Positions 5,722 through 53,190 of a stretch of 64,000 nt of DNA are shown one piece after another. A program made the translations under genes and the position numbers. Each line of letters starts with the position of its first letter. Within the stretch, counting starts at the first letter, position 1. The notes below the pieces were generated by a model. That model did no database searches. It saw only the letters and a list, made by a program, of their open reading frames with translations, and was not told where the DNA came from. The stretch lies in NCBI RefSeq assembly GCF_000800455.1, contig NZ_CP007456.1, forward strand, positions 1,674,001 to 1,738,000, given 5' to 3'. The DNA comes from Bifidobacterium catenulatum PV20-2 (GTDB taxonomy: Bacteria > Actinomycetota > Actinomycetes > Actinomycetales > Bifidobacteriaceae).

Positions 5722-6765
5722 ATGACTACGATGAAGGAAATTGCCGCAGCGGCAGGGGTGTCCATTTCCACCGTTTCCCTGGTACTTAACGGCAGAGATG
5801 AGGGACGTGTGAAAGCCCCGTTGGCCGCGCTCATACGTGAGAAGGCGGACGCACTCGGCTACACGGTCAATCCTCTGGCACGCAGCCTACGCACCTGCCG
5901 CACACGAATTCTCGGCTTCATCAGCGAGGAAGTCGCCACCACCCCGTATGCAGGCGGCATCATTCTGGGCGCGCAGGATGCGGCAAGCGCCTACGGGTAT
6001 ATGATCATCACAGTCAGCACCGATGGCAAGGCAAGCGAAGAGAATGAAATCGCCACATTGAAACGGTATGGCGTGGACGGTTTCTTCTATTCGAAAATGT
6101 CGAACCGCATTACGACCGTGCCTGCATCCCTCGGCGATTATCCGGTGGTGATGGTGGATGCCACCGATGCCGACAACCAGATACCCAGCATCGAGCCAGA
6201 CGAATTCCAAATCGCCTACGATGCCACGAAACGGCTGATCCAAGCCGATTGTGAGAGGATCGCCTATCTCGGCTGTTCGGAAAACATGATTGCGCAGGAC
6301 GGTCGTTTTGCCGGATATCAGGCGGCGTTGCAGGATTCCGGTTTTGCCTACGATCCTTCGTTGGTGTGCAATGTACTCAATAATGGCCCGGCGTTGCGCG
6401 CCGTCGATAAGCTGTTTGATGAACGCAATCCCGACGGTTTCTTCTGTTTCAACGATGCGCGCGCGTGGTATGTGTACGAATGCGCGGCACGCCGTGGACT
6501 GACTGTCGGCAAGGATATTTCCATCGTCGGCGTCGACAACCACCGCGTGTTTGCCGAAACGCTGGAACCGCAGTTGACCACAGTGGAGCTGCCCCACTAT
6601 GAGATGGGTTATTGGGCTGCCTGCAAGCTGATTTCGCTGATCGAACGCAAGCCTGTCGACAGCTCGTCCTGGCCGAGCACCACCGCTCCCCTGCCACCGT
6701 TGGATTCGCCGATTCCCGCGAAGATCCATTGTGCGCTGATAGAAAAGGGATCAGTCCGAAGCTGA
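5722..6765 (+). CDS. LacI-family transcriptional regulator of the fructan genes
   Basis: 347 residues. N-terminal helix-turn-helix MKEIAAAAGVSISTVSLVLNG followed by the hinge helix region VNPLARSLRT, then a periplasmic-binding-like ligand domain. It stands directly upstream of a sugar symporter and a GH32 enzyme whose promoter carries a nested palindrome, so it is very probably their repressor with a fructose- or sucrose-containing effector (inference). There is no clear Shine-Dalgarno site before the ATG. A TAGTGT hexamer ends 7 nt upstream of the ATG, so a leaderless transcript is possible. Confidence 0.92.
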   Translation: MTTMKEIAAAAGVSISTVSLVLNGRDEGRVKAPLAALIREKADALGYTVNPLARSLRTCRTRILGFISEEVATTPYAGGIILGAQDAASAYGYMIITVSTDGKASEENEIATLKRYGVDGFFYSKMSNRITTVPASLGDYPVVMVDATDADNQIPSIEPDEFQIAYDATKRLIQADCERIAYLGCSENMIAQDGRFAGYQAALQDSGFAYDPSLVCNVLNNGPALRAVDKLFDERNPDGFFCFNDARAWYVYECAARRGLTVGKDISIVGVDNHRVFAETLEPQLTTVELPHYEMGYWAACKLISLIERKPVDSSSWPSTTAPLPPLDSPIPAKIHCALIEKGSVRS

Positions 6766-6787
6766 TTTCCTTGATTTGAGATCATGC

Positions 6788-6838
6788 AAGAAGGTTTTTG
6801 ACATGTCTGTTGCGACACGCCGAAGGCCTTCTTTTTAT
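6788..6838 (+). terminator. probable terminator after the LacI-type gene
   Basis: AAGAAGG and CCTTCTT arms separate a 32-nt loop that holds further short pairs, followed by a TTT run. The stem is short, so efficiency is uncertain. Confidence 0.55.
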
Positions 6839-6884
6839 ACCTCATTTCGGCTTAATTGCAACACTTCCGAGAAGCGTTGCAATT

Positions 6885-6910
6885 ATTGACGTCAATCGAT
6901 TGACGTCAAT
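6885..6910 (+). promoter_or_regulatory. nested palindromic operator of the fructan operon
   Basis: Two identical 10-bp palindromes TTGACGTCAA (6886-6895 and 6900-6909) are separated by the self-complementary TCGA, so the whole 26-bp block is itself a perfect palindrome. The right copy contains the -35 hexamer TTGACG (6900-6905) of the promoter entered next. A bound repressor would mask RNA polymerase. It is the natural target of the adjacent LacI-type regulator. Confidence 0.75.
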
Positions 6911-6928
6911 CGTTTGACACGCTATTAT
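6900..6928 (+). promoter_or_regulatory. sigma-70-type promoter of the symporter gene
   Basis: -35 TTGACG, exactly 17 bp, -10 TATTAT. A second TTGACA at 6914-6919 has no suitably placed -10. The start site would be near 6935, leaving a leader of about 110 nt before the chosen ATG at 7048. Confidence 0.75.
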
Positions 6929-7047
6929 TTAACCATGTTCATTCACTTGGCACGGAAGCCGGGTGAATGACGGTACAACACAGCATCGGTCAAACAATGA
7001 AGTGCTGCGCGGCAGCGGCACCAACAAAGAGAAACAGAGAAAACAAC

Positions 7048-40302: not shown

Positions 40303-43226
40303 ATTTCAATCCACACTCTCCGTAAGGAGAGCGACCCGGTCACGCTTCGCTTGACCAAACGGTCCAAAAATTTCAATCCACGCTCTCCATGAGGAGAGCG
40401 ACTTCGACGGATGGCCGTCGCCATAACACACATCCCAATTTCAATCCACGCTCTCCGTGAGGAGAGCGACCCTTTGACCGAAAAAGGGTGGACGGTGCAT
40501 CTCATCATTTCAATCCACGCTCTCCGTGAGGAGAGCGACTCGAATCCACCAACAGCCACGAGAGCGACTTCACATTTCAATCCACGCTCTCCGTGAGGAG
40601 AGCGACTTTTGTTGGCAGTGGCAGTACTTGCGGTGCTAATTTCAATCCACGCTCTCCGTGAGGAGAGCGACCAGGCTGTGGGAGATGCCGCAGCTTGCCC
40701 TCACATTTCAATCCACGCTCTCCGTGAGGAGAGCGACACGGCAAGCATGAACCACGTCGCCATCATCCTATTTCAATCCACGCTCTCCGTGAGGAGAGCG
40801 ACACGGCAAGCATGAACCACGTCGCCATCATCCTATTTCAATCCACGCTCTCCGTGAGGAGAGCGACTTGACGGTCAGCCTGTATTCCTCGGGACACGTG
40901 CTCATTTCAATCCACGCTCTCCGTGAGGAGAGCGACGTGATACCCCAATACCTGCAATGGTTGCTACGCGCATTTCAATCCACGCTCTCCGTGAGGAGAG
41001 CGACCCGCCATAGGAACGTCACGCCGAGCACACTCATCTTTATTTCAATCCACGCTCTCCGTGAGGAGAGCGACGATGGCCGCGACACGCGGTGCCGACG
41101 TGACTGACACATTTCAATCCACGCTCTCCGTGAGGAGAGCGACCACCGATCTCACGGCGTGCCATCTGACGTACAAGCATTTCAATCCACGCTCTCCGTG
41201 AGGAGAGCGACGGCGTGGCTCGCCGCGCTTTGATCTCCGCTTCGGTATTTCAATCCACGCTCTCCGTGAGGAGAGCGACCGCCATCGCCAGCGCTCCGCC
41301 ATTGTTTACCACGATTTCAATCCACGCTCTCCGTGAGGAGAGCGACACACCAACAACAACACAAACACCACACAACACAACATTTCAATCCACGCTCTCC
41401 GTGAGGAGAGCGACCTGTGTTTGCAATATGTTTTCATAAAAGCTATAAGGGATTTCAATCCACGCTCTCCGTGAGGAGAGCGACTCGCTCACGACGGAGG
41501 CCGTCGCATCCTGCATGATTTCAATCCACGCTCTCCGTGAGGAGAGCGACTTTTCGGAAAAATTATTCGCCGTTGTCTTATAATTTCAATCCACGCTCTC
41601 CGTGAGGAGAGCGACCTCCTTCGACGGCATACCTGATACCGGTTGGTTATTTCAATCCACGCTCTCCGTGAGGAGAGCGACCACCCCGTTTCTGGCGGAC
41701 AAAATCATCACCACATTTCAATCCACGCTCTCCGTGAGGAGAGCGACCGGCTGTCCCATGTGCCTGTGGCGACGTCGGCGGGATTTCAATCCACGCTCTC
41801 CGTGAGGAGAGCGACCAAGTGGGCGCAGGCATTGGCCGCGCACCGCAATGAATTTCAATCCACGCTCTCCGTGAGGAGAGCGACGGCCGTTAGAATGTCC
41901 TGTTTCGAACAGTTGTGCGCATTTCAATCCACGCTCTCCGTGAGGAGAGCGACGGCCGTTAGAATGTCCTGTTTCGAACAGTTGTGCGCATTTCAATCCA
42001 CGCTCTCCGTGAGGAGAGCGACCACGCCTTTCCTCGCGGATAAGATCATCACCACATTTCAATCCACGCTCTCCGTGAGGAGAGCGACACGCGTACAATG
42101 CCTGCGATTCGGCGACCAATCCGATTTCAATCCACGCTCTCCGTGAGGAGAGCGACTCATTCGGCTTCTTCGGGCAGTAGCGGTTGATATTTCAATCCAC
42201 GCTCTCCGTGAGGAGAGCGACGCGAAGACCATCGCCGCGAACGCGATCACAGCGGAATTTCAATCCACGCTCTCCGTGAGGAGAGCGACGTGGGCGGTTC
42301 GGACATGAGCACGATCCTCGGACTATTTCAATCCACGCTCTCCGTGAGGAGAGCGACTAGCGCCACCGGTGGTGTCAATCCACAAGGTCATTTCAATCCA
42401 CGCTCTCCGTGAGGAGAGCGACACCGTGGCCCCGACGAACCGTCTCATGATGGTCTATTTCAATCCACGCTCTCCGTGAGGAGAGCGACCATGCAGCATG
42501 ATCTCCGCGAACGCGATCACCGCATTTCAATCCACGCTCTCCGTGAGGAGAGCGACCAGTGCCATTCAGGCAGCTGCATTCGATAACGCAATTTCAATCC
42601 ACGCTCTCCGTGAGGAGAGCGACTCACATAGCAGCTCCCGAACGTAATATCATGCTATTTCAATCCACGCTCTCCGTGAGGAGAGCGACTAGCCGTCATC
42701 GTTGATATGGCGTGACTTTGGCAATTTCAATCCACGCTCTCCGTGAGGAGAGCGACTGGACACCGGTAGTGAAATGGTCACCACGTCGCAGATTTCAATC
42801 CACGCTCTCCGTGAGGAGAGCGACGTCTCGCGGTGTAACGCGCGGCTCATCATTGTGATTTCAATCCACGCTCTCCGTGAGGAGAGCGACCGGGTTCGGC
42901 GTGATCGAACCCCTATGCTTGTAATTTCAATCCACGCTCTCCGTGAGGAGAGCGACTCAAGTCCCCCCATTCGTCCACGAATGAGCGGAAATTTCAATCC
43001 ACGCTCTCCGTGAGGAGAGCGACGGTCGCGGCCTGCGAGTCCGCCGTCCGCCAAGTATTTCAATCCACGCTCTCCGTGAGGAGAGCGACTTGATGACCCG
43101 CTGTTTCTGGCCATCCGCCTGTATGCATTTCAATCCACGCTCTCCGTGAGGAGAGCGACAACATGTCTTCCGGAATCGGAATGATACGGTACGATTTCAA
43201 TCCACGCTCTCCGTGAGGAGAGCGAC
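40303..43226 (-). CRISPR. type I-C CRISPR array, 44 repeats and 43 spacers
   Basis: 33-bp repeat; in the transcribed (minus) sense it begins GTCGCTCTCC, has an 8-bp hairpin (CGCTCTCC/GGAGAGCG) and ends GTGGATTGAAAT, the type I-C pattern. Units are 65-70 bp, spacers 32-37 nt. The first two repeats on the left (40303 and 40370) carry point changes, as expected for the leader-distal end; the rest are uniform. New spacers should enter on the right, next to cas2. Spacers 7 and 8 are identical, as are 24 and 25 (numbered left to right). All short open frames across the array are artefacts. Confidence 0.99.
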
Positions 43227-43380
43227 TGTGCAGCTGGACATTTTTGTCCGCTTTTTGAGACGCAAGCCAGCTGCCTGAATTTAAGCATATCAAACAACAC
43301 CGCCGGCACGACGAACAACATGCCTAAAACGAGCAACTGGCTTTCTGTCTCATTTTAATGTCCATTATTTAGTTTTCAAA
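43227..43380 (-). promoter_or_regulatory. CRISPR leader with promoter
   Basis: Sequence between the newest repeat and cas2. On the minus strand a TTGAAA (43379-43374), 16 bp and TAAAAT (43357-43352) form a plausible promoter reading into the array, with the start about 120 bp before the first repeat. AT-rich with T-runs, as usual for leaders. The remaining stretch to cas2 (43381-43611) shows no gene. Confidence 0.65.
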
Positions 43381-43611
43381 CGCCCCACGAAAATCACAAT
43401 TCGGATTTCGATAGTTTTTCAGGTGCGAAAGACGTCCCTTATCATGAGCGCTTCCACTTCGCACAAACACCATTCCAAGACCGGCCACCTTGCCGAAAAC
43501 ACAATACTGCTGGCTAGAAAACACGCTCTGAATACCGGACACCCCACTCAAACACTCAACCCAGCATACCCCACACCATATCGTTATGGCACCATGCCAT
43601 TTTACCCTGTG

Positions 43612-43902
43612 CTATATCATCATCACATCATTAACCGGCAAACTCCGTTCACGTCCATAATGCTCAATCCTATCCGCATATCGGGCGCCAAGTTTATAAA
43701 AGCGCAGGCTGTCCTCATCGGCATTGGCAATCTTCAGCAAATCGTGCACCAGAACCAGATAATCGGAAGGACTCACCGAGCATTCGAAAACACTGTTCTG
43801 CACACGCTGCCCGTATTTCATGCATATCTTTGCCACCAAACGAAGACGACGCTTTCCCTCAGGGGTTTCCGTACTCACATCGTACGCAACCACAACCATC
43901 AT
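43612..43902 (-). CDS. cas2: CRISPR-associated endonuclease Cas2
   Basis: 96 residues with MMVVVAYDVSTETPEGKRRL, the Cas2 ferredoxin-fold start holding the conserved Asp, and the VFECSVSPSDYL strand. Dimer core of the Cas1-Cas2 integrase. GGAGGTG precedes the ATG. Last gene of the leftward cas operon, next to the leader. Confidence 0.96.
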   Translation of the reverse strand: MMVVVAYDVSTETPEGKRRLRLVAKICMKYGQRVQNSVFECSVSPSDYLVLVHDLLKIANADEDSLRFYKLGARYADRIEHYGRERSLPVNDVMMI

Positions 43903-43967
43903 GGTTTTTCACCTCCAATAACGTATCACCACGAGTCATCGCATACCGTCACACAGCTACGCACCTT

Positions 43968-44999
43968 TTACTTCCACATAAATGGCGGGTAATCATCAAG
44001 ATCACCCCGCAACGATCGAGCTAGCAGCAGCGCTTGCACATACGGAACCAACCCCCACGAAATTTTTTCTTGCAGGAACGGATGAAGAATCTGATCGCTC
44101 TTCTTTTTCTGCCACGCCGTAAGCACTTTCTTCCGCCCGGAATCAGACAGCAGCACACCACCATTCTCCCGTATTTCAAAATCCCCAGGCTTAACAGCAC
44201 CTGTATTAACCAATGTCAGCACAAAGCGGTCAGCCAACACCGGGCGAAACTCTTCAACCAGGTCCAATGCCAGAGAGGCTCTCCCAGGCCGATCCGTATG
44301 CATAAAACCAACATACGGATCCAACCCCACGCCTTGCAAAGCCGCAATGCAATCATTCGTCAATATGGAGTAGCAAAAAGACAACAATGCATTTAGTCTG
44401 TCCAGCGGAGGCCTCCTCGACCTATTGGTGAAAAAGAAATCATCTTTATTCTTCAGAACCAAATCGTCAAAAGCGTAGAAATAATCTTTGGCAGCAAGCC
44501 CTTCGACACCCCTCAACTCATCAACTGTCAAGCTTTTCCGAGCTTCTAACAATGCCGCCGACAATTTGCCGCTCTGCTCAGCAAGTCGGTCAATATTTAC
44601 CCGCAAAGCATGATCACGTTTCGTGCGTTCGAGCACCCATTTCGCATTGTAAAGTTTTCCAACAATGAAAGATTTCGCGTAACACAAAGATTTTTGTTCG
44701 TCATCCGCGACTCGAAATTGTTCACGGCGAAGTAGCACATTACGATTCTCCTCCCCTAACACGGAGCAGTAATAATGACCTCTCGGTGAATAGAATGCTA
44801 TAGAAACGCCCAGTTTGCCGCAGCGCCCCATAAGAGCAGGCGAAGCACCCTTATATGAGAAACACATGATTCCCTCAATTGACCGTAACGGCACTTTCGC
44901 CAAGGTCTTGTCATTCTGATGAATCACAACATTATCGTTCTCCAAAGCAAGATAGGCATCTTCCGTCATCACAAACAGCGTGTTTAACAGCTGCCTCAT
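43968..44999 (-). CDS. cas1: CRISPR-associated integrase Cas1 (type I-C)
   Basis: 343 residues. The ATG overlaps the cas4 stop codon as TGATG; a GTG one codon earlier is also open. Metal-binding residues fall in RGVEGLAAKDYF (Glu), GFMHTDRPGRASLALDLVEE (His) and the following acidic pair. Integrates new spacers at the leader end. Confidence 0.96.
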   Translation of the reverse strand: MRQLLNTLFVMTEDAYLALENDNVVIHQNDKTLAKVPLRSIEGIMCFSYKGASPALMGRCGKLGVSIAFYSPRGHYYCSVLGEENRNVLLRREQFRVADDEQKSLCYAKSFIVGKLYNAKWVLERTKRDHALRVNIDRLAEQSGKLSAALLEARKSLTVDELRGVEGLAAKDYFYAFDDLVLKNKDDFFFTNRSRRPPLDRLNALLSFCYSILTNDCIAALQGVGLDPYVGFMHTDRPGRASLALDLVEEFRPVLADRFVLTLVNTGAVKPGDFEIRENGGVLLSDSGRKKVLTAWQKKKSDQILHPFLQEKISWGLVPYVQALLLARSLRGDLDDYPPFMWK

Positions 45000-45676
45000 C
45001 ACTCCCCGCTTTCCTTGAGCCGTTCTTCGATATATGCTTTTGCCGATTTCACCTTCCGTAATTCAGGCAGGCACAAATCCCGTAGAGAACATGACGAACA
45101 CGATCTGGTCTGTTTCACTTTAGGAGTCCATCCACGGGAAAAAAGATCATGCATTTGCAAGAAGTCAGCTTCGACCATGCTGCGAAGATCTTCGTCCAAT
45201 TTTACCCGCTCACGACGTTTTGTCTGCCGATAGAACAAAGCACCTTCAGGAATATCACACGCAAGCATTTCTTCCAAGCACATCGCTTCCGCGCATAGCT
45301 GTAAACGATCAGCATCAATCGTTTTGGATTTGCCGTGTTTGTATTCAATCGGATACGGCAACCACAATCCATCTCTTCCGTGAAGCGGAACACCATCATT
45401 AGACTTATGGAATTCCACAACATCACAGGCCCCAGTTATACCGAGCGCTCGCGAATAGACTCTCAAATCCCGCATGATCAGCGTATCGCCGCGAGATTCA
45501 GAAGCCGCATAATCATGGGCACGTTCATGTTCCAGATGCCCAGCTGTGGTCAAATAATTCTCTGACCACAGCTGTTCGACATGGATAAGAGCCCACTGTC
45601 GTTTGCAGAATGAGAAATGCTGGATGCCCGAAAGGGCCAGCCAATCTTCTTCCGGATATCCTTCTGGCCCTTTCAT
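44999..45676 (-). CDS. cas4: CRISPR-associated Cas4 (RecB-like nuclease)
   Basis: 225 residues. RecB-type nuclease motif in LPYPIEYKHGKSK; four iron-sulfur Cys split between FCKRQW near the N-terminus and CSSCSLRDLC near the C-terminus. Selects PAM-proximal prespacer ends with Cas1-Cas2. Translationally coupled to cas1. Confidence 0.96.
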   Translation of the reverse strand: MKGPEGYPEEDWLALSGIQHFSFCKRQWALIHVEQLWSENYLTTAGHLEHERAHDYAASESRGDTLIMRDLRVYSRALGITGACDVVEFHKSNDGVPLHGRDGLWLPYPIEYKHGKSKTIDADRLQLCAEAMCLEEMLACDIPEGALFYRQTKRRERVKLDEDLRSMVEADFLQMHDLFSRGWTPKVKQTRSCSSCSLRDLCLPELRKVKSAKAYIEERLKESGE

Positions 45677-45709
45677 GCAACACCCCTTACTTACTCAATT
45701 CCAAACGCT

Positions 45710-46555
45710 TCAGCGTCCTTCAATCACTTCGTACCGCAAGTCGGGAATAGAAGATTCATTCACTGCCACCGTTCCGTCCACATTAACGGAAACGGAACGA
45801 TGAACTTTGGCGGAGGAGTATTGCCCTGACTTGCTGTTGTGCATGAACCACACAACGTCCAGCACTTCCATGGACCCCGCAGGACGAGCCGAACTTTCAT
45901 CATTCTCAAACAACGTGACGAGAGCTTCCTTGATTTTTTCGGCGTCTTCTGCAGTAAACCCGGTTTTTTCGGCAAGCTGTGGGCTGATGCTGCCATACGT
46001 TGCATACACCGCACGGCCGGAAACACGGTATTTCATTCCCATGGTGTCGGAGGATTTCTTACCGGTGTCCGTGGTTTCACTGTTCACTGACTTAGTGATC
46101 TGCACGTCGTCAATGGCGATGGGTTCAACCGAGAACGCGGCCTGAATGGAAACCGGACCGCGCACGCCCAAGGAAACTTCATCAACATCCTTGGCTTTTT
46201 TGAACGCGAATACTTGTCCGAACGCACGTACGTCAAGCCACTGTTCGCACACTTTCTGGAACACCAGGTTCTTTTGTTTCTGCTCTTCTTTCGGCAAGGT
46301 TTTCAGATATGTGTTGAAACGATCCGACAATGATTTTGCGCCGTCATCGGAACGGTCATCGGACTGCACGAAAATCGTTTCCCCAGCATCTTGCAGGCGA
46401 TTGCGAATCTTCCTTTTCAGTGCAACATCAGAAACCTCGCCCAGCCCTTCCGATGTGGTTCGTGGACGATTGCCATTCAACGGATCACCGTTAGGATTGG
46501 CATTATTAGCCGCAAAAACGACTGCGAAATCAATCTTGTTTTCCAAAGCTGCCAT
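45710..46555 (-). CDS. cas7: Cascade backbone subunit Cas7 (Csd2, type I-C)
   Basis: 281 residues. N-terminal FAVVFAANNANPNGDPLNGN and RPRTTSEGLGEVSDVALKRK are the Csd2/Csh2 signature. Forms the crRNA-covering filament of Cascade. 59 bp after cas8c, with AAGGAG before the ATG. Confidence 0.97.
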   Translation of the reverse strand: MAALENKIDFAVVFAANNANPNGDPLNGNRPRTTSEGLGEVSDVALKRKIRNRLQDAGETIFVQSDDRSDDGAKSLSDRFNTYLKTLPKEEQKQKNLVFQKVCEQWLDVRAFGQVFAFKKAKDVDEVSLGVRGPVSIQAAFSVEPIAIDDVQITKSVNSETTDTGKKSSDTMGMKYRVSGRAVYATYGSISPQLAEKTGFTAEDAEKIKEALVTLFENDESSARPAGSMEVLDVVWFMHNSKSGQYSSAKVHRSVSVNVDGTVAVNESSIPDLRYEVIEGR

Positions 46556-46614
46556 GATATGACTCCTTAACTTTTTCTTTGATAATCAACGTCGATAACT
46601 TCAAAAACTAAACA

Positions 46615-48492
46615 CTAGTTTTCTTTGCTCTTCTGGGATGCTTCTTGCGCTTTACGCATAGACTCCCTTCGCTGGCATGAATAACCGAGCAAAAAGAGCG
46701 GTGAAAGTGCACGGTTATCTTCGAAGTCTCCTTCTTTGAAAAGCGCCATGACCTCATCCACGCTGTTCTGGAACCAGGGCGCGCCATTCGCCGATTTCAG
46801 GTAGGGCATCAGTTGTTTCCACAGCGTTCCCCATGTTGTAAACGGCTTTGCGACGAAATTGCTCATGAGCTTAACGGCATTGGTCGGACGGGTGTCACTG
46901 ATTCCTTGCTTGTACAGGACACCGTTTTCAAAGCGGTCTGCGAGTGCCAGCAATCTCCCGTATAAGTAGTCGCGGTCATTTCGTGTTGGTTCAAGGTACA
47001 TGGATATCGTGTCCTCCTGTTTGTTTTGCTTCCTCGCGTCGTCAATGTAATGTTTTTTCCATAGGCTGCATGCGATTTCAAAATCTCTTAGCCATGCTCC
47101 TGGAGCGTCATATCCCATAGGTTTAGTGACTCTGTGGTATGTGGCGTCCAATATGGAGCGGGGAAGCGATTCTCCTCCGAACATGCATTCTATAAGCTGC
47201 TTTTTCGTGTTTTTCGCAAAACGTTTATAGGCTTTGCTGCTTCTGTCTGACACGTCATATGCGCAGCTGATGATGTCGGCAAATGGTGGCGCACCTTCAT
47301 ATGCGACAAACTTCTTTTTTTCTTTGTCGTACATTTTCAACGGCCATGCCGCATCAACATGCCACCGCAGGATACTTTCGACATATTCGTCTTTTGAAAG
47401 TTCACGATAATATGTAACGCTCAAACGCCCTGATGTCGCCGCATCCAGAATGACAATCATCATTGGGTCGGCATGCTTTTTGAGTTTGTTAGCATTGCCA
47501 TATCCGCGCAGTACCTTCGAAAAAACTTGTGCGTATTGAAAGTTTGTTGCGGTCAGCGCATCTGCAATATCGTTGCGGGGAGCTTCCGGCTCTTCCACAT
47601 CCGATGAGAACAAAGAGTCAAAATCATAAGAACCTTCCTGAGGGTCAAGCTTCGGCTTTTCGTTGGGGTTTTTCACCGAGCAGATGACTATGGCCTGGGT
47701 ATCGGTAATCGTTCCATGATTATTGACCAACCATTGCAGCGTCGAATGTATCTTCTGCGATGTTTCACCATCGACTTGCAAAGCCTCCTCTTTGGATGCG
47801 AAGCGCCCTCGATAGGTGAAATTCGTTGAATCGTTTGCCGATAACAGTTTGGCGTTGCCATTTACGCTGACAATTTTCTTAGGGAAGTTCAATATCGGAG
47901 CATATAGGTCCTCTCCGAACATATCCTTCCCTTTTTTCTGTCGATCATGGTACAAATAAGAAATCCATTGCGCCTGTATATCGGGATCGTTCGAGACATC
48001 TGAGTTTTGCAGCCCAATTTCAACTTCGAAGCAAACACCTGCTTTCCGGTCTTTTTCGGTTATTTCCACATTGAATCGAGCGGCTTCTTCGCTGATGCTG
48101 TGTTCCGAGACGCATCGATAGATGGCATTGAGTTTGACGTTGTCGCCTTTCCAGGCGGCAAGCTGCTCCAAATACATGGAGGTTTTCTCCTTGTCGAAAT
48201 GCAAGTCGAGATATTGGAGCTGATCAAACAGAGGATGCGGTACCGGCTTGATGGTGCGTCCCATGGAACTTTCTGTGCACGGGATGACAATCGTTTGTTT
48301 TTCCCTCAGAAGCCGTAGTATCTCACCATTCCCGTTTACCCCTAGCGTCAATAGTGTCGGAAGTGTCGTATGCCCCGGAGGAATCAAGGCTTTCCTAATG
48401 TCAAGCGTAGAACCGTCGTCACTTCTCGGAATTTTTCCGGCGGCGTTGTGCACAGATTCGTTGATAAGCAACAGATTGTTCGACAGGCTCAT
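46615..48492 (-). CDS. cas8c: Cascade large subunit Cas8c (Csd1, type I-C)
   Basis: 625 residues from the ATG; a GTG directly before it abuts the cas5 stop. PAM-recognising large subunit of type I-C Cascade. SGRLSVTYYRELSKDEYVES and PFTTWGTLWKQLMPYL match the Csd1 family. In I-C systems the 3' part often also yields a separate Cas11c small subunit from an internal start; I did not fix such a start here. Confidence 0.95.
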   Translation of the reverse strand: MSLSNNLLLINESVHNAAGKIPRSDDGSTLDIRKALIPPGHTTLPTLLTLGVNGNGEILRLLREKQTIVIPCTESSMGRTIKPVPHPLFDQLQYLDLHFDKEKTSMYLEQLAAWKGDNVKLNAIYRCVSEHSISEEAARFNVEITEKDRKAGVCFEVEIGLQNSDVSNDPDIQAQWISYLYHDRQKKGKDMFGEDLYAPILNFPKKIVSVNGNAKLLSANDSTNFTYRGRFASKEEALQVDGETSQKIHSTLQWLVNNHGTITDTQAIVICSVKNPNEKPKLDPQEGSYDFDSLFSSDVEEPEAPRNDIADALTATNFQYAQVFSKVLRGYGNANKLKKHADPMMIVILDAATSGRLSVTYYRELSKDEYVESILRWHVDAAWPLKMYDKEKKKFVAYEGAPPFADIISCAYDVSDRSSKAYKRFAKNTKKQLIECMFGGESLPRSILDATYHRVTKPMGYDAPGAWLRDFEIACSLWKKHYIDDARKQNKQEDTISMYLEPTRNDRDYLYGRLLALADRFENGVLYKQGISDTRPTNAVKLMSNFVAKPFTTWGTLWKQLMPYLKSANGAPWFQNSVDEVMALFKEGDFEDNRALSPLFLLGYSCQRRESMRKAQEASQKSKEN

Positions 48493-48495
48493 CAC

Positions 48496-49203
48496 TCACT
48501 CCTCTCCCACCGGCTGCAGATTGCTCCCCAAAGCGAATTCCTTGACACTCTGGTTTTTCCTGATAATTCGTCCATCCAATTTCGTGGATTCCGGACGCTC
48601 AAATTCGATGATGCCGTCGGACATAACAGGCGACCAGAATCGGGCGATAAAATCGTGGTCCTCGTTTTCATCCGGATACGTGAATCCATGGAACATGTAT
48701 CCCATATTCCACTCGCCATAACCGTCATAAAACCCTTCGCCAGATCCGAACTCACATGGTTCCACATACCCCTGGCACTCGCGCGTCCCCAAGAATATGT
48801 CTCGGCGACCGCCTTTCTGAACGGATCTCAAGGCGATGTTATGATGTTTGTTTTCGTCGCGGTCAGCGACAAGATCTTCACGCTGATCATTCCATTCGAA
48901 ATGAGCCAAAACCTGATAACGCACGTCTTTGAGATATGTGTAGTACGAAAGATCATTGCCACCGCTCATTTTGATGGGTCGAATTCCCTTCCCTTCAGTC
49001 TGAACTCTGTTCATCACACGAACAGCGTCAATAACCCACATAAAAGTTGGCTTCCAATAGATGCTTTCCGTAATGCCTTTCAAAGCTTGGTACGTTGGCA
49101 CCTGATACGAAAATTTCTCACCCCCAACACGTGTTGCCGCTTCCGAGAACAACGCATATCTGCCTGATACCTCATATTCAATTGAGTTGCGATGTCGTTG
49201 CAT
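48496..49203 (-). CDS. cas5c: CRISPR RNA endonuclease Cas5c (Cas5d)
   Basis: 235 residues. In type I-C this subunit replaces Cas6: it cuts pre-crRNA at the base of the repeat hairpin and stays bound to the 5' handle. Begins [19 protein letters not shown], typical of the family. AAGGAG lies 8 nt before the ATG. It heads the cas5-cas8-cas7-cas4-cas1-cas2 run and has its own promoter in the 242-bp gap to cas3. Confidence 0.96.
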
Positions 49204-49243
49204 ATAACTCCTTCGTTAATCGTTCCCTCAACCAGCCACTGTC

Positions 49244-49272
49244 AATATAGCACATTTTACGCTTATTGTACA
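49244..49272 (-). promoter_or_regulatory. promoter of the cas5-cas8-cas7-cas4-cas1-cas2 operon
   Basis: On the minus strand: -35 TGTACA (49272-49267), exactly 17 bp, -10 TATATT (49249-49244), predicted start near 49237 and a 34-nt leader before the cas5 ATG. A TTC (complement of 49275-49277) stands directly 5' of the segment targeted by the crRNA-like RNA described next. Confidence 0.75.
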
Positions 49273-49277
49273 TAGAA
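49253..49277 (-). promoter_or_regulatory. predicted Cascade target (protospacer with TTC PAM) on the cas5 promoter
   Basis: Minus strand reads TTC then TATGTACAATAAGCGTA. Against the spacer-like segment TATGTACAACATGCGTA of the divergent RNA, 15 of 17 positions agree, positions 1-9 without a mismatch. The mismatches are at 10 and 12; in Cascade position 12 is flipped out and does not count. The target covers the -35 hexamer and most of the -35/-10 spacer. Confidence 0.75.
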
Positions 49278-49320
49278 CTCTTTGAGTGTTTCTCAATCAA
49301 CAATCAACCAGTTATTCTTG

Positions 49321-49433
49321 TATAAGTAGGTTTTCCTACTGTCGCCACATTCATGGCGTGGATTGAAAATATGTACAACATGCGTATTTACCAAACGAAA
49401 CTCTCCTGCAGATTCCCATCGATCTGCAGGAGA
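49321..49433 (+). ncRNA. candidate crRNA-like regulatory RNA (CreR-like) with degenerate CRISPR repeat
   Basis: Divergent to cas5. Parts in order: -10 like TATAAG (49321-49326; a weak -35 TCAACA at 49297); a small hairpin AGTAGG/CCTACT; a degenerate repeat at 49341-49369 that keeps GTCGC, a shortened hairpin CGCCA/TGGCG and the 11-nt handle as TGGATTGAAAA; a spacer-like segment of about 32 nt starting at 49370; and a 12-bp hairpin TCTCCTGCAGAT/ATCTGCAGGAGA at 49402-49433 that echoes the CTCTCC/GGAGAG stem of true repeats. Cas5c could cut it into a guide. Its 5' spacer part matches the cas5 promoter beside a TTC PAM. Known parallels are Cas-regulating and CreA-type RNAs in other CRISPR types; function here is inferred. 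Confidence 0.75.
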
Positions 49434-49445
49434 ACCACTGCCCTT

Positions 49446-51863
49446 TCATATCATCAACAGAGACATGTCTGTCTCTGTCACCACGCCATATTCGCCTTTG
49501 TAATAATCTCCATTCAGAACGCAAATATCGAAATCCTCGTTAGCGATGGAAATCGCATGTTTTTCGTTCAAAATCTTGTATTCGTAATCGAAAAGGGAGA
49601 CCGTGTATTCCTGTAGCCGCCGCAGAATCGCAATCTTCTCCCTCAACTCACCGTGGCCCAACATATCCAGTAATTCCATCGCATTGCCATAGGGAACCAC
49701 AACATTGTGCGTGATTTTCGGAATCACACGATATTCATTGCCGACCGTTTTGAACGCCTGGGCAAAAAACGGATTGTATCTCTCCCCCATCGTATTGTTC
49801 TCGAATTGCTTACGTTGGCTTTCGTTGTATGCCAGCAACTCATAAATCGTTTTTCCAGCGTTTTCCTTTTTCCAAAGCGAACCATCCAGCAAACTATTGC
49901 CGCCATCTCGATCCTCACTTTGAAGCAGCATGCCATAAAACTCATTGAGCATGCCAGTAGAAAGCAGATCAGCATCAGGATGCTCACCCATAATCTGCAA
50001 AGTGAGCTTTTTGCCTCTGTGAATCTCTGGAAGATAGTCCTTGAACCTTTCCTCACCTTGCAACGGATAGACATACACATCCTTGATTTCTTTCGATTCA
50101 CCATTCCTGTTGCACCTGCCAGCCGCTTGCATAATGCTATCCAGACCAGCCATCGCCCTGACTACGCATGCGAACGAAAGGTCCACTCCCGCTTCGATAA
50201 GCTGCGTACTTACGCAAATCACCGGCTTGGAATCATGAGGATCAGTTAACACCTTTATTCTCGCTAACTGGTCTGCCCTATGTTTGCCACACATGGCAGT
50301 ACTCAAATGAATCAACTCAAACTGCCCGTCAGCATTGAGCTCTTGCAAACACTGATACATTTTGCGCGCTTCACTCTTCGTGTTGACGATAGACAGGCAA
50401 TTGCCGTTCCGAAGTGCCTGCTCATATATGATGTTCGCAAGTTCCTCGCAACTCTTGCTTTCCTGTGAAGCAATAATCCGGGTACGCTTGAGCTTCTCTT
50501 CGTAACCATCAGTATTGTCGATAAGATCAGGCTCGTCTGACAGACGCAGATTCTTTCGCGCCGTTCGTTCCAATAAAGGCTGCGTAGCTGAGCACAGCAG
50601 AATAGTCGAGTCCAATATCGTCGAAAGAAAACTCACAACTTCATTAAACGGATTGATGATATTCAACGGAAGCGACTGAATCTCATCAAAAATGATGACG
50701 CTATTGGCCATGTTGTGGAATTTACGAAGTTTCGTACCACGCGCCGACATAACCGTTTCCAAGAATTCGACCATCGTGGTCACGATGATCGGATTATCCC
50801 AACGTTCAGACGCCAGTTTACGTTGACGTTCCTTCGCATCCTCTTCCTCACTTGTGCCGATAGATCCCGTGTTATCGGAATTCTGAAGGCCCGCGGTGGA
50901 GTAATGCTCCAGCACAATATTGCTGTCAGCATCCAGACCAAGCATATTCCGGAATGTTGCCACGGTCTGTGACGTAATAGACAAGTACGGAATCACATAA
51001 ATGATTCGTCTTTTCCCTGTTTCCAAAGCATGATGCAAGGCGAAATTCAACGAAGCCAACGTTTTACCGCCTCCGGTCGGAACCGACAATCGGTAAATCC
51101 CTGTCTCTCTGCTCCCAGCTTGACGGCACTGTTCCGTAATCTGTTGACGGATTTTATTGATTTCGGATGTCGAATCGAATGATTTCATGCTTTCGTCAAG
51201 ATGGCGAATCAGTTCCGACCAATCCGCCTTGATCGGATGATATTGCTCTTTCGTCTCAAAATAAGCCGTATCTGTTCTATCGGCATCAATCAAACGAGAA
51301 TAAACGTATTTAACTAGTAATCCCGAGTAGAAATAACGACTATCTTTCGACAATTTCAGCGATTTAGTTCGTCCTGCAAAATCGAAAACATCCTTTTCGG
51401 CCTGCTGGAAGGTGTCTTGCAAGTCGAGGTCCAAATCATGTAGCCCCTGTTTGATTTCCCCATACGCATATTTAGGATTCTGTTTATCTGCTTCCGTAAA
51501 ACCTGTGAGAAAAGCCTCATCACCGATTTCATTGATGCAATCAGGAAGCTCTCCATGATGTTTTGCAATAACAAGTTCAAGAATCTCTTTCACGATTTCC
51601 GCTGCCGAATTCGAAATCGGCAGGTCATTGACGACGAACGCACCCTGCCTCGCATGAGGAATCTCACCACGACGTCCCTTGCCTGATATCAGATACGTTT
51701 GAAACTGTTGCGCGACCTTTCCAACATCATGCAGGAGCGCAGCCATTCGTGAAATTTGAGAGAATTCAGATTCATAGCTTTCCGCCAAATCACCCGCACC
51801 ATGGAGATGACCATGCAGCGTTTGCACATTACCGTCCGCATCTCTGTGCGCCAACAAGTCCAT
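49446..51863 (-). CDS. cas3: CRISPR-associated nuclease-helicase Cas3 (type I-C), expression signals removed by IS
   Basis: 805 residues, coding sequence intact. N-terminal HD nuclease (HLHGAGDLA, then LLHDVGK with His45-Asp46), helicase with Walker A in VPTGGGKTLAS, DEIQSLP box and QAAGRCNRNGE. Degrades DNA marked by Cascade. The IS element ends 6 bp upstream of the ATG: what now precedes it is AACCCCGGATC, with no Shine-Dalgarno site. The original AAGGGG lies on the far side at 53236-53241. I find no convincing outward promoter in the IS end. Translation is probably poor or absent. Confidence 0.95.
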   Translation of the reverse strand: MDLLAHRDADGNVQTLHGHLHGAGDLAESYESEFSQISRMAALLHDVGKVAQQFQTYLISGKGRRGEIPHARQGAFVVNDLPISNSAAEIVKEILELVIAKHHGELPDCINEIGDEAFLTGFTEADKQNPKYAYGEIKQGLHDLDLDLQDTFQQAEKDVFDFAGRTKSLKLSKDSRYFYSGLLVKYVYSRLIDADRTDTAYFETKEQYHPIKADWSELIRHLDESMKSFDSTSEINKIRQQITEQCRQAGSRETGIYRLSVPTGGGKTLASLNFALHHALETGKRRIIYVIPYLSITSQTVATFRNMLGLDADSNIVLEHYSTAGLQNSDNTGSIGTSEEEDAKERQRKLASERWDNPIIVTTMVEFLETVMSARGTKLRKFHNMANSVIIFDEIQSLPLNIINPFNEVVSFLSTILDSTILLCSATQPLLERTARKNLRLSDEPDLIDNTDGYEEKLKRTRIIASQESKSCEELANIIYEQALRNGNCLSIVNTKSEARKMYQCLQELNADGQFELIHLSTAMCGKHRADQLARIKVLTDPHDSKPVICVSTQLIEAGVDLSFACVVRAMAGLDSIMQAAGRCNRNGESKEIKDVYVYPLQGEERFKDYLPEIHRGKKLTLQIMGEHPDADLLSTGMLNEFYGMLLQSEDRDGGNSLLDGSLWKKENAGKTIYELLAYNESQRKQFENNTMGERYNPFFAQAFKTVGNEYRVIPKITHNVVVPYGNAMELLDMLGHGELREKIAILRRLQEYTVSLFDYEYKILNEKHAISIANEDFDICVLNGDYYKGEYGVVTETDMSLLMI

Positions 51864-51869
51864 GATCCG

Positions 51870-51896
51870 GGGTTATTGGCCAAAATGTGTGTCTGG
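51870..51896 (+). repeat. left terminal inverted repeat of the IS
   Basis: Starts GGGTTATTGGCC and ends GTGTGTCTGG; exact reverse complement of the right end. An 18-bp part (GGCCAAAATGTGTGTCTG) recurs as a direct repeat at 51968-51985 inside the element, perhaps a second transposase-binding site. Confidence 0.95.
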
Positions 51897-52050
51897 AATT
51901 GTCTCTGAGGCCTTGTGCTGCAAGGGTCTGGAGGTATTTGAATGTGATGGAGGGGACTTTCCAGGTCGGCCAAAATGTGTGTCTGAAACCGGTTGGGACG
52001 TCTTATAACAGTAGGCGTGAGGAGCGTTTGAATGTGGTTGTCTGAAAGGT

Positions 52051-53190
52051 ATGAGAATTCCTCTGTGTCCCGGATGTCACACCACGATGAAGAAGAACGG
52101 AAAGACCTCGGCCGGTAGGACGCGCTGGCGGTGCAAGGATCCCGGCTGCGGTAGCTCGCTGTCGCGCGGCTATGATCGGCGGGCGGCGGATCTGGAGACG
52201 TCGCTGCGCTGGTTGTTGTCCAAGCAAAGCCAGGCCGAGTATGCGATCCCGGCGCGCACGCTGCGCCGGATGAACGAGTTGTTATGGAGCCTGTGGCCGC
52301 CGGTTCCGCTGGTCGACGAGGTGTATGACGTGGTGCATTTGGACGGTATTCACTTGCATCGGGATGCGGTCGTGTTGATAGCGATCGCCTGCGGGCATGT
52401 GATCGGCTGGTACGTCGCCAAAAGCGAGACCGCTGCCGCGTGGGCTCATCTCATGGCCAGGATCGCCCCGCCACTGGCGGTGGTGGTCGACGGGGGCGGT
52501 GGCATTCTGAAGGCATTGCGCGAGCACTGGCCTGATACCAAGGTGCAGCGGTGCTTGTTTCACGTGTGCATGAACATCACCCAGCTCACCGGAATCAAGC
52601 CAAGGTCCGAGGCAGGCAAACAACTGCGGAAGATTGCTGTCGCCTTGAGCCGCGTGACGGACACGGATGCCGCGGCCGCATGGCTCGCCTCCTACAACCA
52701 GTGGGAGCAAACGTACGACGCGTTCCTTGACGAGAAGAGCACGTACGCGGACGGTACCATAGCCGACCAGCACCAACGCCTCGTCAAAGCCAAACGCATG
52801 ATCCGCAGACGTATCCGCGAGAACCACCTGTTCACGTTCCTGGAACCACCCAAGGGTTGCACCACGCCGATCCCAGCGACGAACAACCTCATCGAGTCAT
52901 GGAACGGGCGGATCCGCGACATGCTCCGCCACCACCGGGGATTAAGCCTGTTGCGCCGAATCAAGGCGATCTGCTGGTGGTGTTATCAACACACCCGACA
53001 GCCCAAACCAGCCTCATGGCTCATAACCAACGCCATCAGTGACCAGCAGATCGAGGAACTCTACCGCAAAGCATGGGAACACAGCCCACAAGGCGCATAC
53101 GAAACCTACGGCATCCCCAACCGGTACGGCACCGGCATCGACTGGAACGAATTCCACACCCGCGTAAAATACCCCAACACCACCGACTAA
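52051..53190 (+). CDS. IS256-family (IS1249-like) transposase
   Basis: 379 residues. N-terminal zinc-finger-like region (CPGCHTTMKKNGKT ... RCKDPGCG), then the DDE core: first Asp in VVHLDGIHLH, second Asp in AVVVDGGGG, and Glu in NNLIESWNGRIRD. FHVCMNITQLTG lies between. No frameshift or stop, so likely active. AAAGG is only 1 nt from the ATG; translation may start at another codon nearby. Confidence 0.93.
   Translation: MRIPLCPGCHTTMKKNGKTSAGRTRWRCKDPGCGSSLSRGYDRRAADLETSLRWLLSKQSQAEYAIPARTLRRMNELLWSLWPPVPLVDEVYDVVHLDGIHLHRDAVVLIAIACGHVIGWYVAKSETAAAWAHLMARIAPPLAVVVDGGGGILKALREHWPDTKVQRCLFHVCMNITQLTGIKPRSEAGKQLRKIAVALSRVTDTDAAAAWLASYNQWEQTYDAFLDEKSTYADGTIADQHQRLVKAKRMIRRRIRENHLFTFLEPPKGCTTPIPATNNLIESWNGRIRDMLRHHRGLSLLRRIKAICWWCYQHTRQPKPASWLITNAISDQQIEELYRKAWEHSPQGAYETYGIPNRYGTGIDWNEFHTRVKYPNTTD

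What the first reader, a model, noticed from the sequence alone, without database searches (positions are those of the whole stretch)
49253..49277. The spacer-like segment matches the cas5 promoter next to a TTC PAM: predicted Cascade autorepression
The first 17 nt of the spacer-like segment (from 49370) agree at 15 positions with the minus-strand sequence starting at 49274, with nine matches in a row at the seed end, and TTC, the type I-C PAM, sits directly 5' of it. One of the two mismatches is at position 12, which Cascade does not read. The target covers the -35 box (TGTACA) and spacer of the promoter for cas5-cas8-cas7-cas4-cas1-cas2. Match stops after position 17, which should allow binding without full R-loop and cleavage. 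PAM, seed and promoter position all agreeing by chance is unlikely.
Basis: partly seen in the sequence, partly recalled or inferred. Interest (0 to 1): 0.95.

Follow-up and report, generated by a model that had tools for sequence, protein, structure and literature searches.

The report
Guide RNA braking its CRISPR operon
Beside its CRISPR immune genes this Bifidobacterium has a lone CRISPR-type repeat followed by a guide-like stretch that matches the predicted switch of those same genes, so it likely makes an RNA that would steer the CRISPR complex to turn down its own production; in related bacteria the guide-like stretch and the switch region have both changed but still match each other.

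Summary
A solitary, degenerate type I-C repeat (49341-49369, +) is followed by a guide whose positions 1-17 match the predicted cas5 promoter at 15 of 17 positions, directly after a TTC PAM. The TTC+seed site occurs once in the 2.37-Mb genome. Relatives decide the question: in 10 of 13 Bifidobacterium I-C loci examined, a lone repeat lies beside the predicted cas promoter (before cas5 or cas3), and its guide (8 distinct guides) matches that promoter beside TTC. Ten of 73 named loci outside the family, all Bacillota, have similar pairs upstream of cas genes, some far enough away to be ambiguous. Across 20 TTC pairs, positions 1-5, 7-11 and 13-17 match in 12-20 of 20 each, but 6, 12 and 18 in only 5, 8 and 5: the six-base footprint of a Cascade-bound guide. 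Own guides fit in 16 of 19 cas-proximal elements, swapped guides in 6 of 756 trials. Best reading: a type I-C cas-regulating RNA (CreR). The kind is known (one review names I-B, I-E, V-A). I found no I-C case in print, but the primary paper was not held. Transcription, processing and repression are untested.

The parts
49341..49369 (+). solitary degenerate type I-C repeat: 5-bp stem, 6-nt loop, 11-nt 5' handle TGGATTGAAAA at 49359-49369
   Evidence: sequence; folds: canonical repeat 8 bp + 4-nt loop + 11-nt tail, this one 5 bp + 6-nt loop + 11-nt tail (z only -0.9); only non-array GTGGATTGAAA in the genome
49370..49401 (+). guide (32 nt up to the hairpin); positions 1-17 carry the match
49402..49433 (+). 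13-bp hairpin right after the guide, predicted 3' end of the RNA and/or end of the cas3 transcript on the other strand; no T run, so not a standard terminator
   Evidence: -22 kcal/mol, z -7.0; one search found no terminator-like site
49321..49326 (+). possible -10 (TATAAG) of the predicted RNA gene, 14 nt before the repeat
   Evidence: read from the sequence; weak
49258..49274 (-). target (protospacer side), 15 of 17 matches to the guide
   Evidence: co-variation
49275..49277 (-). TTC PAM
   Evidence: TTC is the PAM reported for Bifidobacterium type I-C (PMC7284854, passages)
49244..49272 (-). predicted cas5 promoter, -35 TGTACA and extended -10 TATATT
48496..49203 (-). cas5c, first gene of the predicted controlled operon; AAGGAG at 49213-49208
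46615..48495 (-). cas8c
45710..46555 (-). cas7 (csd2)
44999..45676 (-). cas4
43968..45002 (-). cas1c
43612..43902 (-). cas2
49446..51863 (-). cas3, upstream of and outside the predicted controlled promoter
40303..43226 (-). canonical CRISPR array of the same system (44 repeats with the exact GTGGATTGAAA end)

Best explanation
The site is predicted to be the target of a type I-C cas-regulating RNA (CreR): the lone repeat at 49341-49369 and its guide from 49370 would be loaded into the type I-C Cascade, which likely binds the predicted cas5 promoter at 49258-49277 and lowers transcription of cas5-cas8-cas7-cas4-cas1-cas2. Shown by sequence: one degenerate repeat with the I-C hairpin shape and 11-nt handle, a guide matching 15 of 17 positions beside the I-C PAM over the predicted -35 box, one such site in the genome, and guide-target co-variation across lineages with positions 6, 12 and 18 free. 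Inferred: the RNA is made, Cas5c cuts it to leave the 11-nt handle, Cascade carries it, binding blocks RNA polymerase, and pairing that fades after 17 does not license Cas3 cleavage. By analogy with known CreRs, abundant array crRNAs or phage anti-CRISPRs would relieve the brake; this is untested here.
For: match and PAM; unique target and unique solitary repeat in the genome; 10 Bifidobacterium loci with matched guides, 8 distinct; own guides reach 9 or more of 10 core positions in 20 of 48 solitary handles; swapped 13 of 2254; shuffled 10 of 2400; cas-proximal exact handles 16 of 19; swapped 6 of 756; position footprint over 20 TTC pairs; 20 of 69 unmasked pairs carry TTC, next commonest triplet 4; target overlaps a predicted cas promoter in the window and in all 8 other Bifidobacterium rows listed; no chance control was run for this overlap; -10-like hexamers and hairpins in relatives; fold.
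Against: No expression, processing or binding data exist here. The promoter calls are consensus matches only. In the nine Bacillota rows, four (L071, L087, L094, L098) have no top-two promoter overlapping the target, and in five (L066, L071, L084, L087, L094) the target lies 211-564 nt before the cas start, so those may control something else. The RNA's own promoter in the window is weak (best 3 of 6 in the last 22 nt under the strict rule; TATAAG lies 14 nt upstream), the degenerate repeat's fold is hardly better than shuffles (z -0.9), and the 3' hairpin lacks a T run. It is not universal: no pair seen in G031 or B. saimiriisciurei (L036), a decayed one in G086, and none in 13 other Actinomycetes I-C genomes with the handle patterns tried.
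Confidence: 0.88

Rival explanations
1. CreA antitoxin of a CreTA or CrePA module: the RNA would repress a toxin RNA or protein rather than the cas genes.
For: Same anatomy (ectopic repeat, partial match, TTC PAM) is described for creA (PMC8501985, passages). One relative, L076, targets the promoter-like stretch just before its own repeat, upstream of a DUF3800 ORF, and in several Bacillota loci the target is far from cas.
Against: In the window the target promoter's -10 ends at 49244 and cas5 starts at 49203, which leaves a leader of about 35 nt with AAGGAG and no room for a toxin gene. In the nine Bifidobacterium rows the cas start codon is 33-75 nt from the target.
Confidence: 0.05
2. Inverted operator pair for a DNA-binding repressor: the two matching stretches are two binding sites, and the repeat is incidental.
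For: The shared core contains the palindrome TGTACA.
Against: The shared sequence differs in each lineage while the repeat handle stays fixed. TTC lies on the target side only, mismatches concentrate at positions 6, 12 and 18, and targets occur on either strand in Bacillota.
Confidence: 0.03
3. Relic: an orphan repeat with a self-targeting spacer left from an old array, without present function.
For: The repeat is degenerate and single; G086 looks decayed.
Against: Guide and promoter stay matched while both change between species, a stem is kept with different letters, and G038 carries a target letter at position 10 that pairs where the window's does not.
Confidence: 0.03
4. RNA anti-CRISPR (Racr): a solitary repeat RNA that poisons Cascade; RacrIC1 from B. 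pseudocatenulatum is described.
For: Solitary repeat; a type I-C Racr is known from Bifidobacterium (PMC10651486, passages).
Against: It lies inside the cas locus between cas3 and cas5, and it carries a guide matched to the local promoter.
Confidence: 0.01

Closest known systems
CreR, cas-regulating RNAs of types I-B, I-E and V-A (review passages PMC13131331, PMC12737573, PMC12948488; primary paper recalled as Cell Host Microbe 2023, not held)
   Same: crRNA-like RNA from a mini-CRISPR or lone repeat, partial match to the cas promoter, predicted autorepression, no toxin gene
   Different: type I-C, where Cas5c (Cas5d) and not Cas6 makes the handle (PMC5965380, passages); one repeat with a hairpin in place of the second; in this species cas3 is outside the controlled operon
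CreA of CreTA modules (PMC8501985, passages; PMC9458426, start of abstract in listings 11 and 49)
   Same: degenerate repeat, partial match beside TTC; the one-repeat form ending in a terminator is described for H. hispanica
   Different: the target here is the cas5 promoter, with no toxin gene
Racr, RNA anti-CRISPRs (PMC10651486, passages)
   Same: solitary repeat RNA, including a type I-C one from B. pseudocatenulatum
   Different: encoded in viral genomes and described as a repeat mimic that forms an aberrant Cas subcomplex, not as a guide matched to a cas promoter

Membership tests
CreR (cas-regulating RNA) | crRNA-like element with repeat hairpin and 5' handle, outside the array, in the cas locus | tested here: met
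CreR (cas-regulating RNA) | guide with partial complementarity to the cognate cas promoter beside the PAM | tested here: met
   the promoter itself is a prediction
CreR (cas-regulating RNA) | not coupled to a toxin gene | tested here: met
   about 35-nt leader between predicted promoter and cas5
CreR (cas-regulating RNA) | RNA is expressed, processed and bound by the effector | not testable with these tools
   no RNA data
CreR (cas-regulating RNA) | represses cas transcription and is relieved by crRNA competition or anti-CRISPRs | not testable with these tools
   needs bench work
CreTA / CrePA antitoxin RNA | controlled promoter drives a toxin RNA or protein | tested here: not met
   predicted promoter leads directly into cas5
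Racr (RNA anti-CRISPR) | solitary repeat in a virus or prophage | tested here: not met
   lies between cas3 and cas5
canonical CRISPR array | two or more near-identical repeats flanking spacers | tested here: not met
   one degenerate repeat, no second copy found in the intergenic region

The most novel reading that the evidence does not exclude
Single-repeat CreRs are a widespread self-tuning layer of type I-C CRISPR. Each lineage keeps its own guide and cas promoter in step over 17 bases, with every sixth base free. Where the gene sits between cas3 and cas5 it sets the level of Cascade without touching cas3, so the surveillance complex acts as its own thermostat. The six-base footprint lets such regulators be found from sequence alone.
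Probability: 0.5. Interest if true: 0.75.

Novelty: new member of a known kind. Interest (0 to 1): 0.64.

Why it matters
Type I-C was reported as the most abundant subtype among 954 Bifidobacterium genomes (PMC7284854, abstract passage). If right, this system is built to hold its own effector low, which would affect endogenous CRISPR editing and CRISPRi in probiotics and predicts that anti-CRISPRs such as AcrIC5 or RacrIC1 would raise cas expression. The position footprint gives natural evidence for how far and at which bases a regulatory Cascade target must pair, and makes RNA-guided autorepression in type I-C directly testable.

Tried and rejected
Rfam scan of 43200-52000 gave no match up to E 1, so no described RNA family was found there. 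The terminator consensus scan found nothing in 49150-49500; the 3' hairpin lacks a T run, so I do not claim a proven terminator. Other Actinomycetes: 13 I-C genomes outside the genus (14 of 394 with a match including the own genome) had no matching pair (two handle-like words, both 5 of 10); their repeats may end differently and some stretches are cut by contig ends, so this is a weak negative. G031, B. saimiriisciurei (L036) and a Bifidobacteriaceae MAG (L045) showed no pair, and G086 only a decayed one. Six further genus genomes had only weak Cas5 hits (29-42% identity) and were not followed. Cas-proximal exact handles that failed the 9-of-10 bar: L049 and L081 (8 of 10, perhaps real) and L065 (6 of 10). 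L071 contributes two of the 20 TTC pairs; the second is probably chance. L076 and L086 are among the 20 but do not sit at a cas promoter. L034 and L035 were left out, and L035 out, as near-duplicates of the window; L066 is absent's list (array filter with broader patterns, presumed). Masked N stretches of L109 swamped the printout; one search repeats the count without N: 69 pairs, 20 with TTC from 19 elements. The other 49 pairs have other triplets and are taken as chance.

Full report
WHAT IS THERE. The window holds a type I-C locus on the minus strand: cas3 (49446-51863), then after a 242-nt gap cas5c, cas8c, cas7, cas4, cas1c and cas2, followed by the array. The genus is Bifidobacterium: genus genomes G012 and G025 have contigs of the same length as named records of B. 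bohemicum and B. commune. The gap between cas3 and cas5 carries, on the plus strand, one degenerate repeat (49341-49369), a 32-nt guide (49370-49401) and a 13-bp hairpin (49402-49433). The repeat keeps the I-C shape with other letters: 5-bp stem, 6-nt loop and 11-nt tail, against 8 bp, 4-nt loop and 11-nt tail in the array repeat; its short stem is hardly more stable than shuffles (z -0.9). An 8-bp hairpin and 11-nt handle are described for Bifidobacterium I-C (PMC7284854, passages). In the whole genome GTGGATTGAAA occurs 45 times: 44 in the array and once here.

THE MATCH. The guide's first 17 letters match the minus strand from 49274 at 15 positions, 1-9 unbroken, with TTC directly 5'. TTC is the reported PAM of Bifidobacterium I-C. 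No other site in 64 kb combines TTC with six seed matches, and TTCTATGTNCAA occurs once in the 2.37-Mb genome, here. The target lies over the -35 box of the only promoter-like site found in 49150-49500 (TGTACA-17-TATATT with TG before the -10). That promoter would start transcription about 35 nt before cas5 (read).

In the genus scan 18 of 112 genomes matched Cas5c, 12 of them closely. Adding B. saimiriisciurei (L036) gives 13 Bifidobacterium I-C loci. Ten have the pair: the window, G038, G060, G001, G028, G085, G098, G012 and G025, and G095. They carry 8 distinct guides, and each matches its own promoter region beside TTC. In G028, G085, G098, G012, G025 and G095, where cas5 follows cas3 within about 50 nt, the element lies before cas3; in the window, G038, G060 and G001, where a gap of about 240-270 nt separates them, it lies before cas5. 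It goes with the predicted promoter. G038 has the window's guide but a different target letter at position 10, so positions 1-11 all match there. G086 looks decayed; G031 and L036 have none seen.

BEYOND THE GENUS. Of 73 named loci outside Bifidobacteriaceae, 10 have a pair upstream of cas3 or cas5 (L066, L071, L084, L087, L092, L094, L098, L100, L102, L112). By the organism names in their titles all are Bacillota (Bacillus, Sporosarcina, Paenibacillus, Pullulanibacillus, Neobacillus, Clostridiales, Eubacteriales, Roseburia). In L100 the element sits in the cas3-cas5 gap as in the window; in L084 it lies 280 nt before cas5 in a gap of about 2.2 kb. Of the nine of these, four have the target within 110 nt of the cas start (L098, L100, L102, L112) and five at 211-564 nt, where another gene could be the one controlled. 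Thirteen other Actinomycetes I-C genomes had no pair with the handle patterns tried.

CONTROLS. Over all solitary GGATTGAAA words in 86 loci (48 words in 35 loci), the own guide reaches at least 9 of 10 core positions beside TTC in 20 of 48, swapped guides in 13 of 2254, shuffled ones in 10 of 2400. For exact handles in the cas3-upstream or cas3-cas5 region (76 of 85 loci had a usable region) it is 16 of 19; with variant handles 17 of 28; swapped guides over those 28 elements reach it in 6 of 756.

FOOTPRINT. With no PAM or mask in the selection (at least 9 of the first 11 positions), 69 unmasked pairs were found; 20, from 19 elements, had TTC, and the next commonest triplet had 4. Matches by position in the 20: 1-5, 20 each; 6, 5; 7, 20; 8, 18; 9, 18; 10, 19; 11, 20; 12, 8; 13, 19; 14, 18; 15, 15; 16, 14; 17, 12; 18, 5; 19-32, 3 to 10 each. 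Selection on positions 1-11 cannot explain why the misses there fall on 6, and positions 12-18 were not selected at all. In type I-E Cascade the bases at 6, 12, 18, 24 and 30 are flipped out (PMC5965380, passages). The pattern therefore points to Cascade reading the site, with pairing kept to about 17 and no further. Targets occur on either DNA strand relative to cas in Bacillota, which fits blocking of DNA rather than pairing with mRNA.

GENE ANATOMY IN RELATIVES. A -10-like hexamer with at least 5 of 6 matches lies within 22 nt before the repeat in 11 of 21 elements, against 4 of 21 in a stretch further upstream and 24% in shuffles. In 10 of 21 the best hexamer lies exactly 6 nt before the repeat (five of those ten have 5 or 6 matches, five have 3 or 4), so in those transcription likely starts near the repeat. 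A hairpin stronger than letter shuffles follows the guide in 19 of 21 (z -3.0 or lower; exceptions L076, L098). In the window the -10 candidate is weaker and 14 nt away. A predicted promoter overlaps the target in the window and in the 8 other Bifidobacterium rows, and in 5 of 9 Bacillota rows among the top two; I ran no chance control for this overlap.

MECHANISM. Likely steps, all inferred: the RNA is made, Cas5c cuts below the stem and leaves the 11-nt handle, Cascade binds the promoter through TTC and the seed, RNA polymerase is kept off, and pairing that fades after 17 does not license Cas3. Because cas3 is upstream of the controlled promoter in this species, the brake would set Cascade and Cas4-Cas1-Cas2 levels without directly touching cas3. 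In the window strain a transposase gene (Pfam Transposase_mut) and its flank abut the cas3 start, where G038 and G060 have another leader with a ribosome-site-like GGAG, so cas3 control here may differ from that in its relatives.

KNOWN OR NEW. RNA-guided cas autorepression is known as CreR. A 2026 review names types I-B, I-E and V-A (PMC13131331, passages); another says Type I and Type V-A without naming I-C (PMC12737573, passages). The primary paper is not held. Searches showed no I-C case, but the library holds only open-licence papers. A one-repeat guide ending in a terminator is described for creA of H. hispanica (PMC8501985, passages). I therefore file this as a new member of a known kind, in a subtype that I did not find named for it.

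Noticed in passing
L076:6080-6140 and 6283-7041 (Paenibacillus sp. SZ31): A solitary-repeat RNA whose target (TTC, 15 of 17) overlaps the -10-like TATAAG just before its own repeat, upstream of a 252-aa DUF3800 ORF (Pfam): it would repress itself or guard that gene (CreTA/CrePA-like).
   Followed up: partly
L086:20142-20511 (Sporosarcina luteola): A guide-target pair of the same footprint about 10 kb from cas5, next to a 63-aa transposase-type helix-turn-helix ORF; the target gene is unclear.
   Followed up: partly
51864-53190: A Mutator-type transposase ORF (52051-53190) and its flank abut the cas3 start; G038 and G060 have a different leader with GGAG there, so cas3 expression in this strain may be altered.
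   Followed up: partly
49325-49340: Dyad AGTAGG-TTTT-CCTACT directly before the solitary repeat; G001 has GTGGGA-TT-CCCAC at the same place, a paired change whose role is unknown.
   Followed up: no
40705-40834, 41852-41989, 41649-42088: The array has two exact duplications of a repeat-spacer unit and one 94% pair.
   Followed up: no
L026:2900-3470 (G086): By eye, a decayed relative of the element: handle GATTAAAAA and a guide matching only positions 3-5 and 8-13 of the site before cas3.
   Followed up: partly
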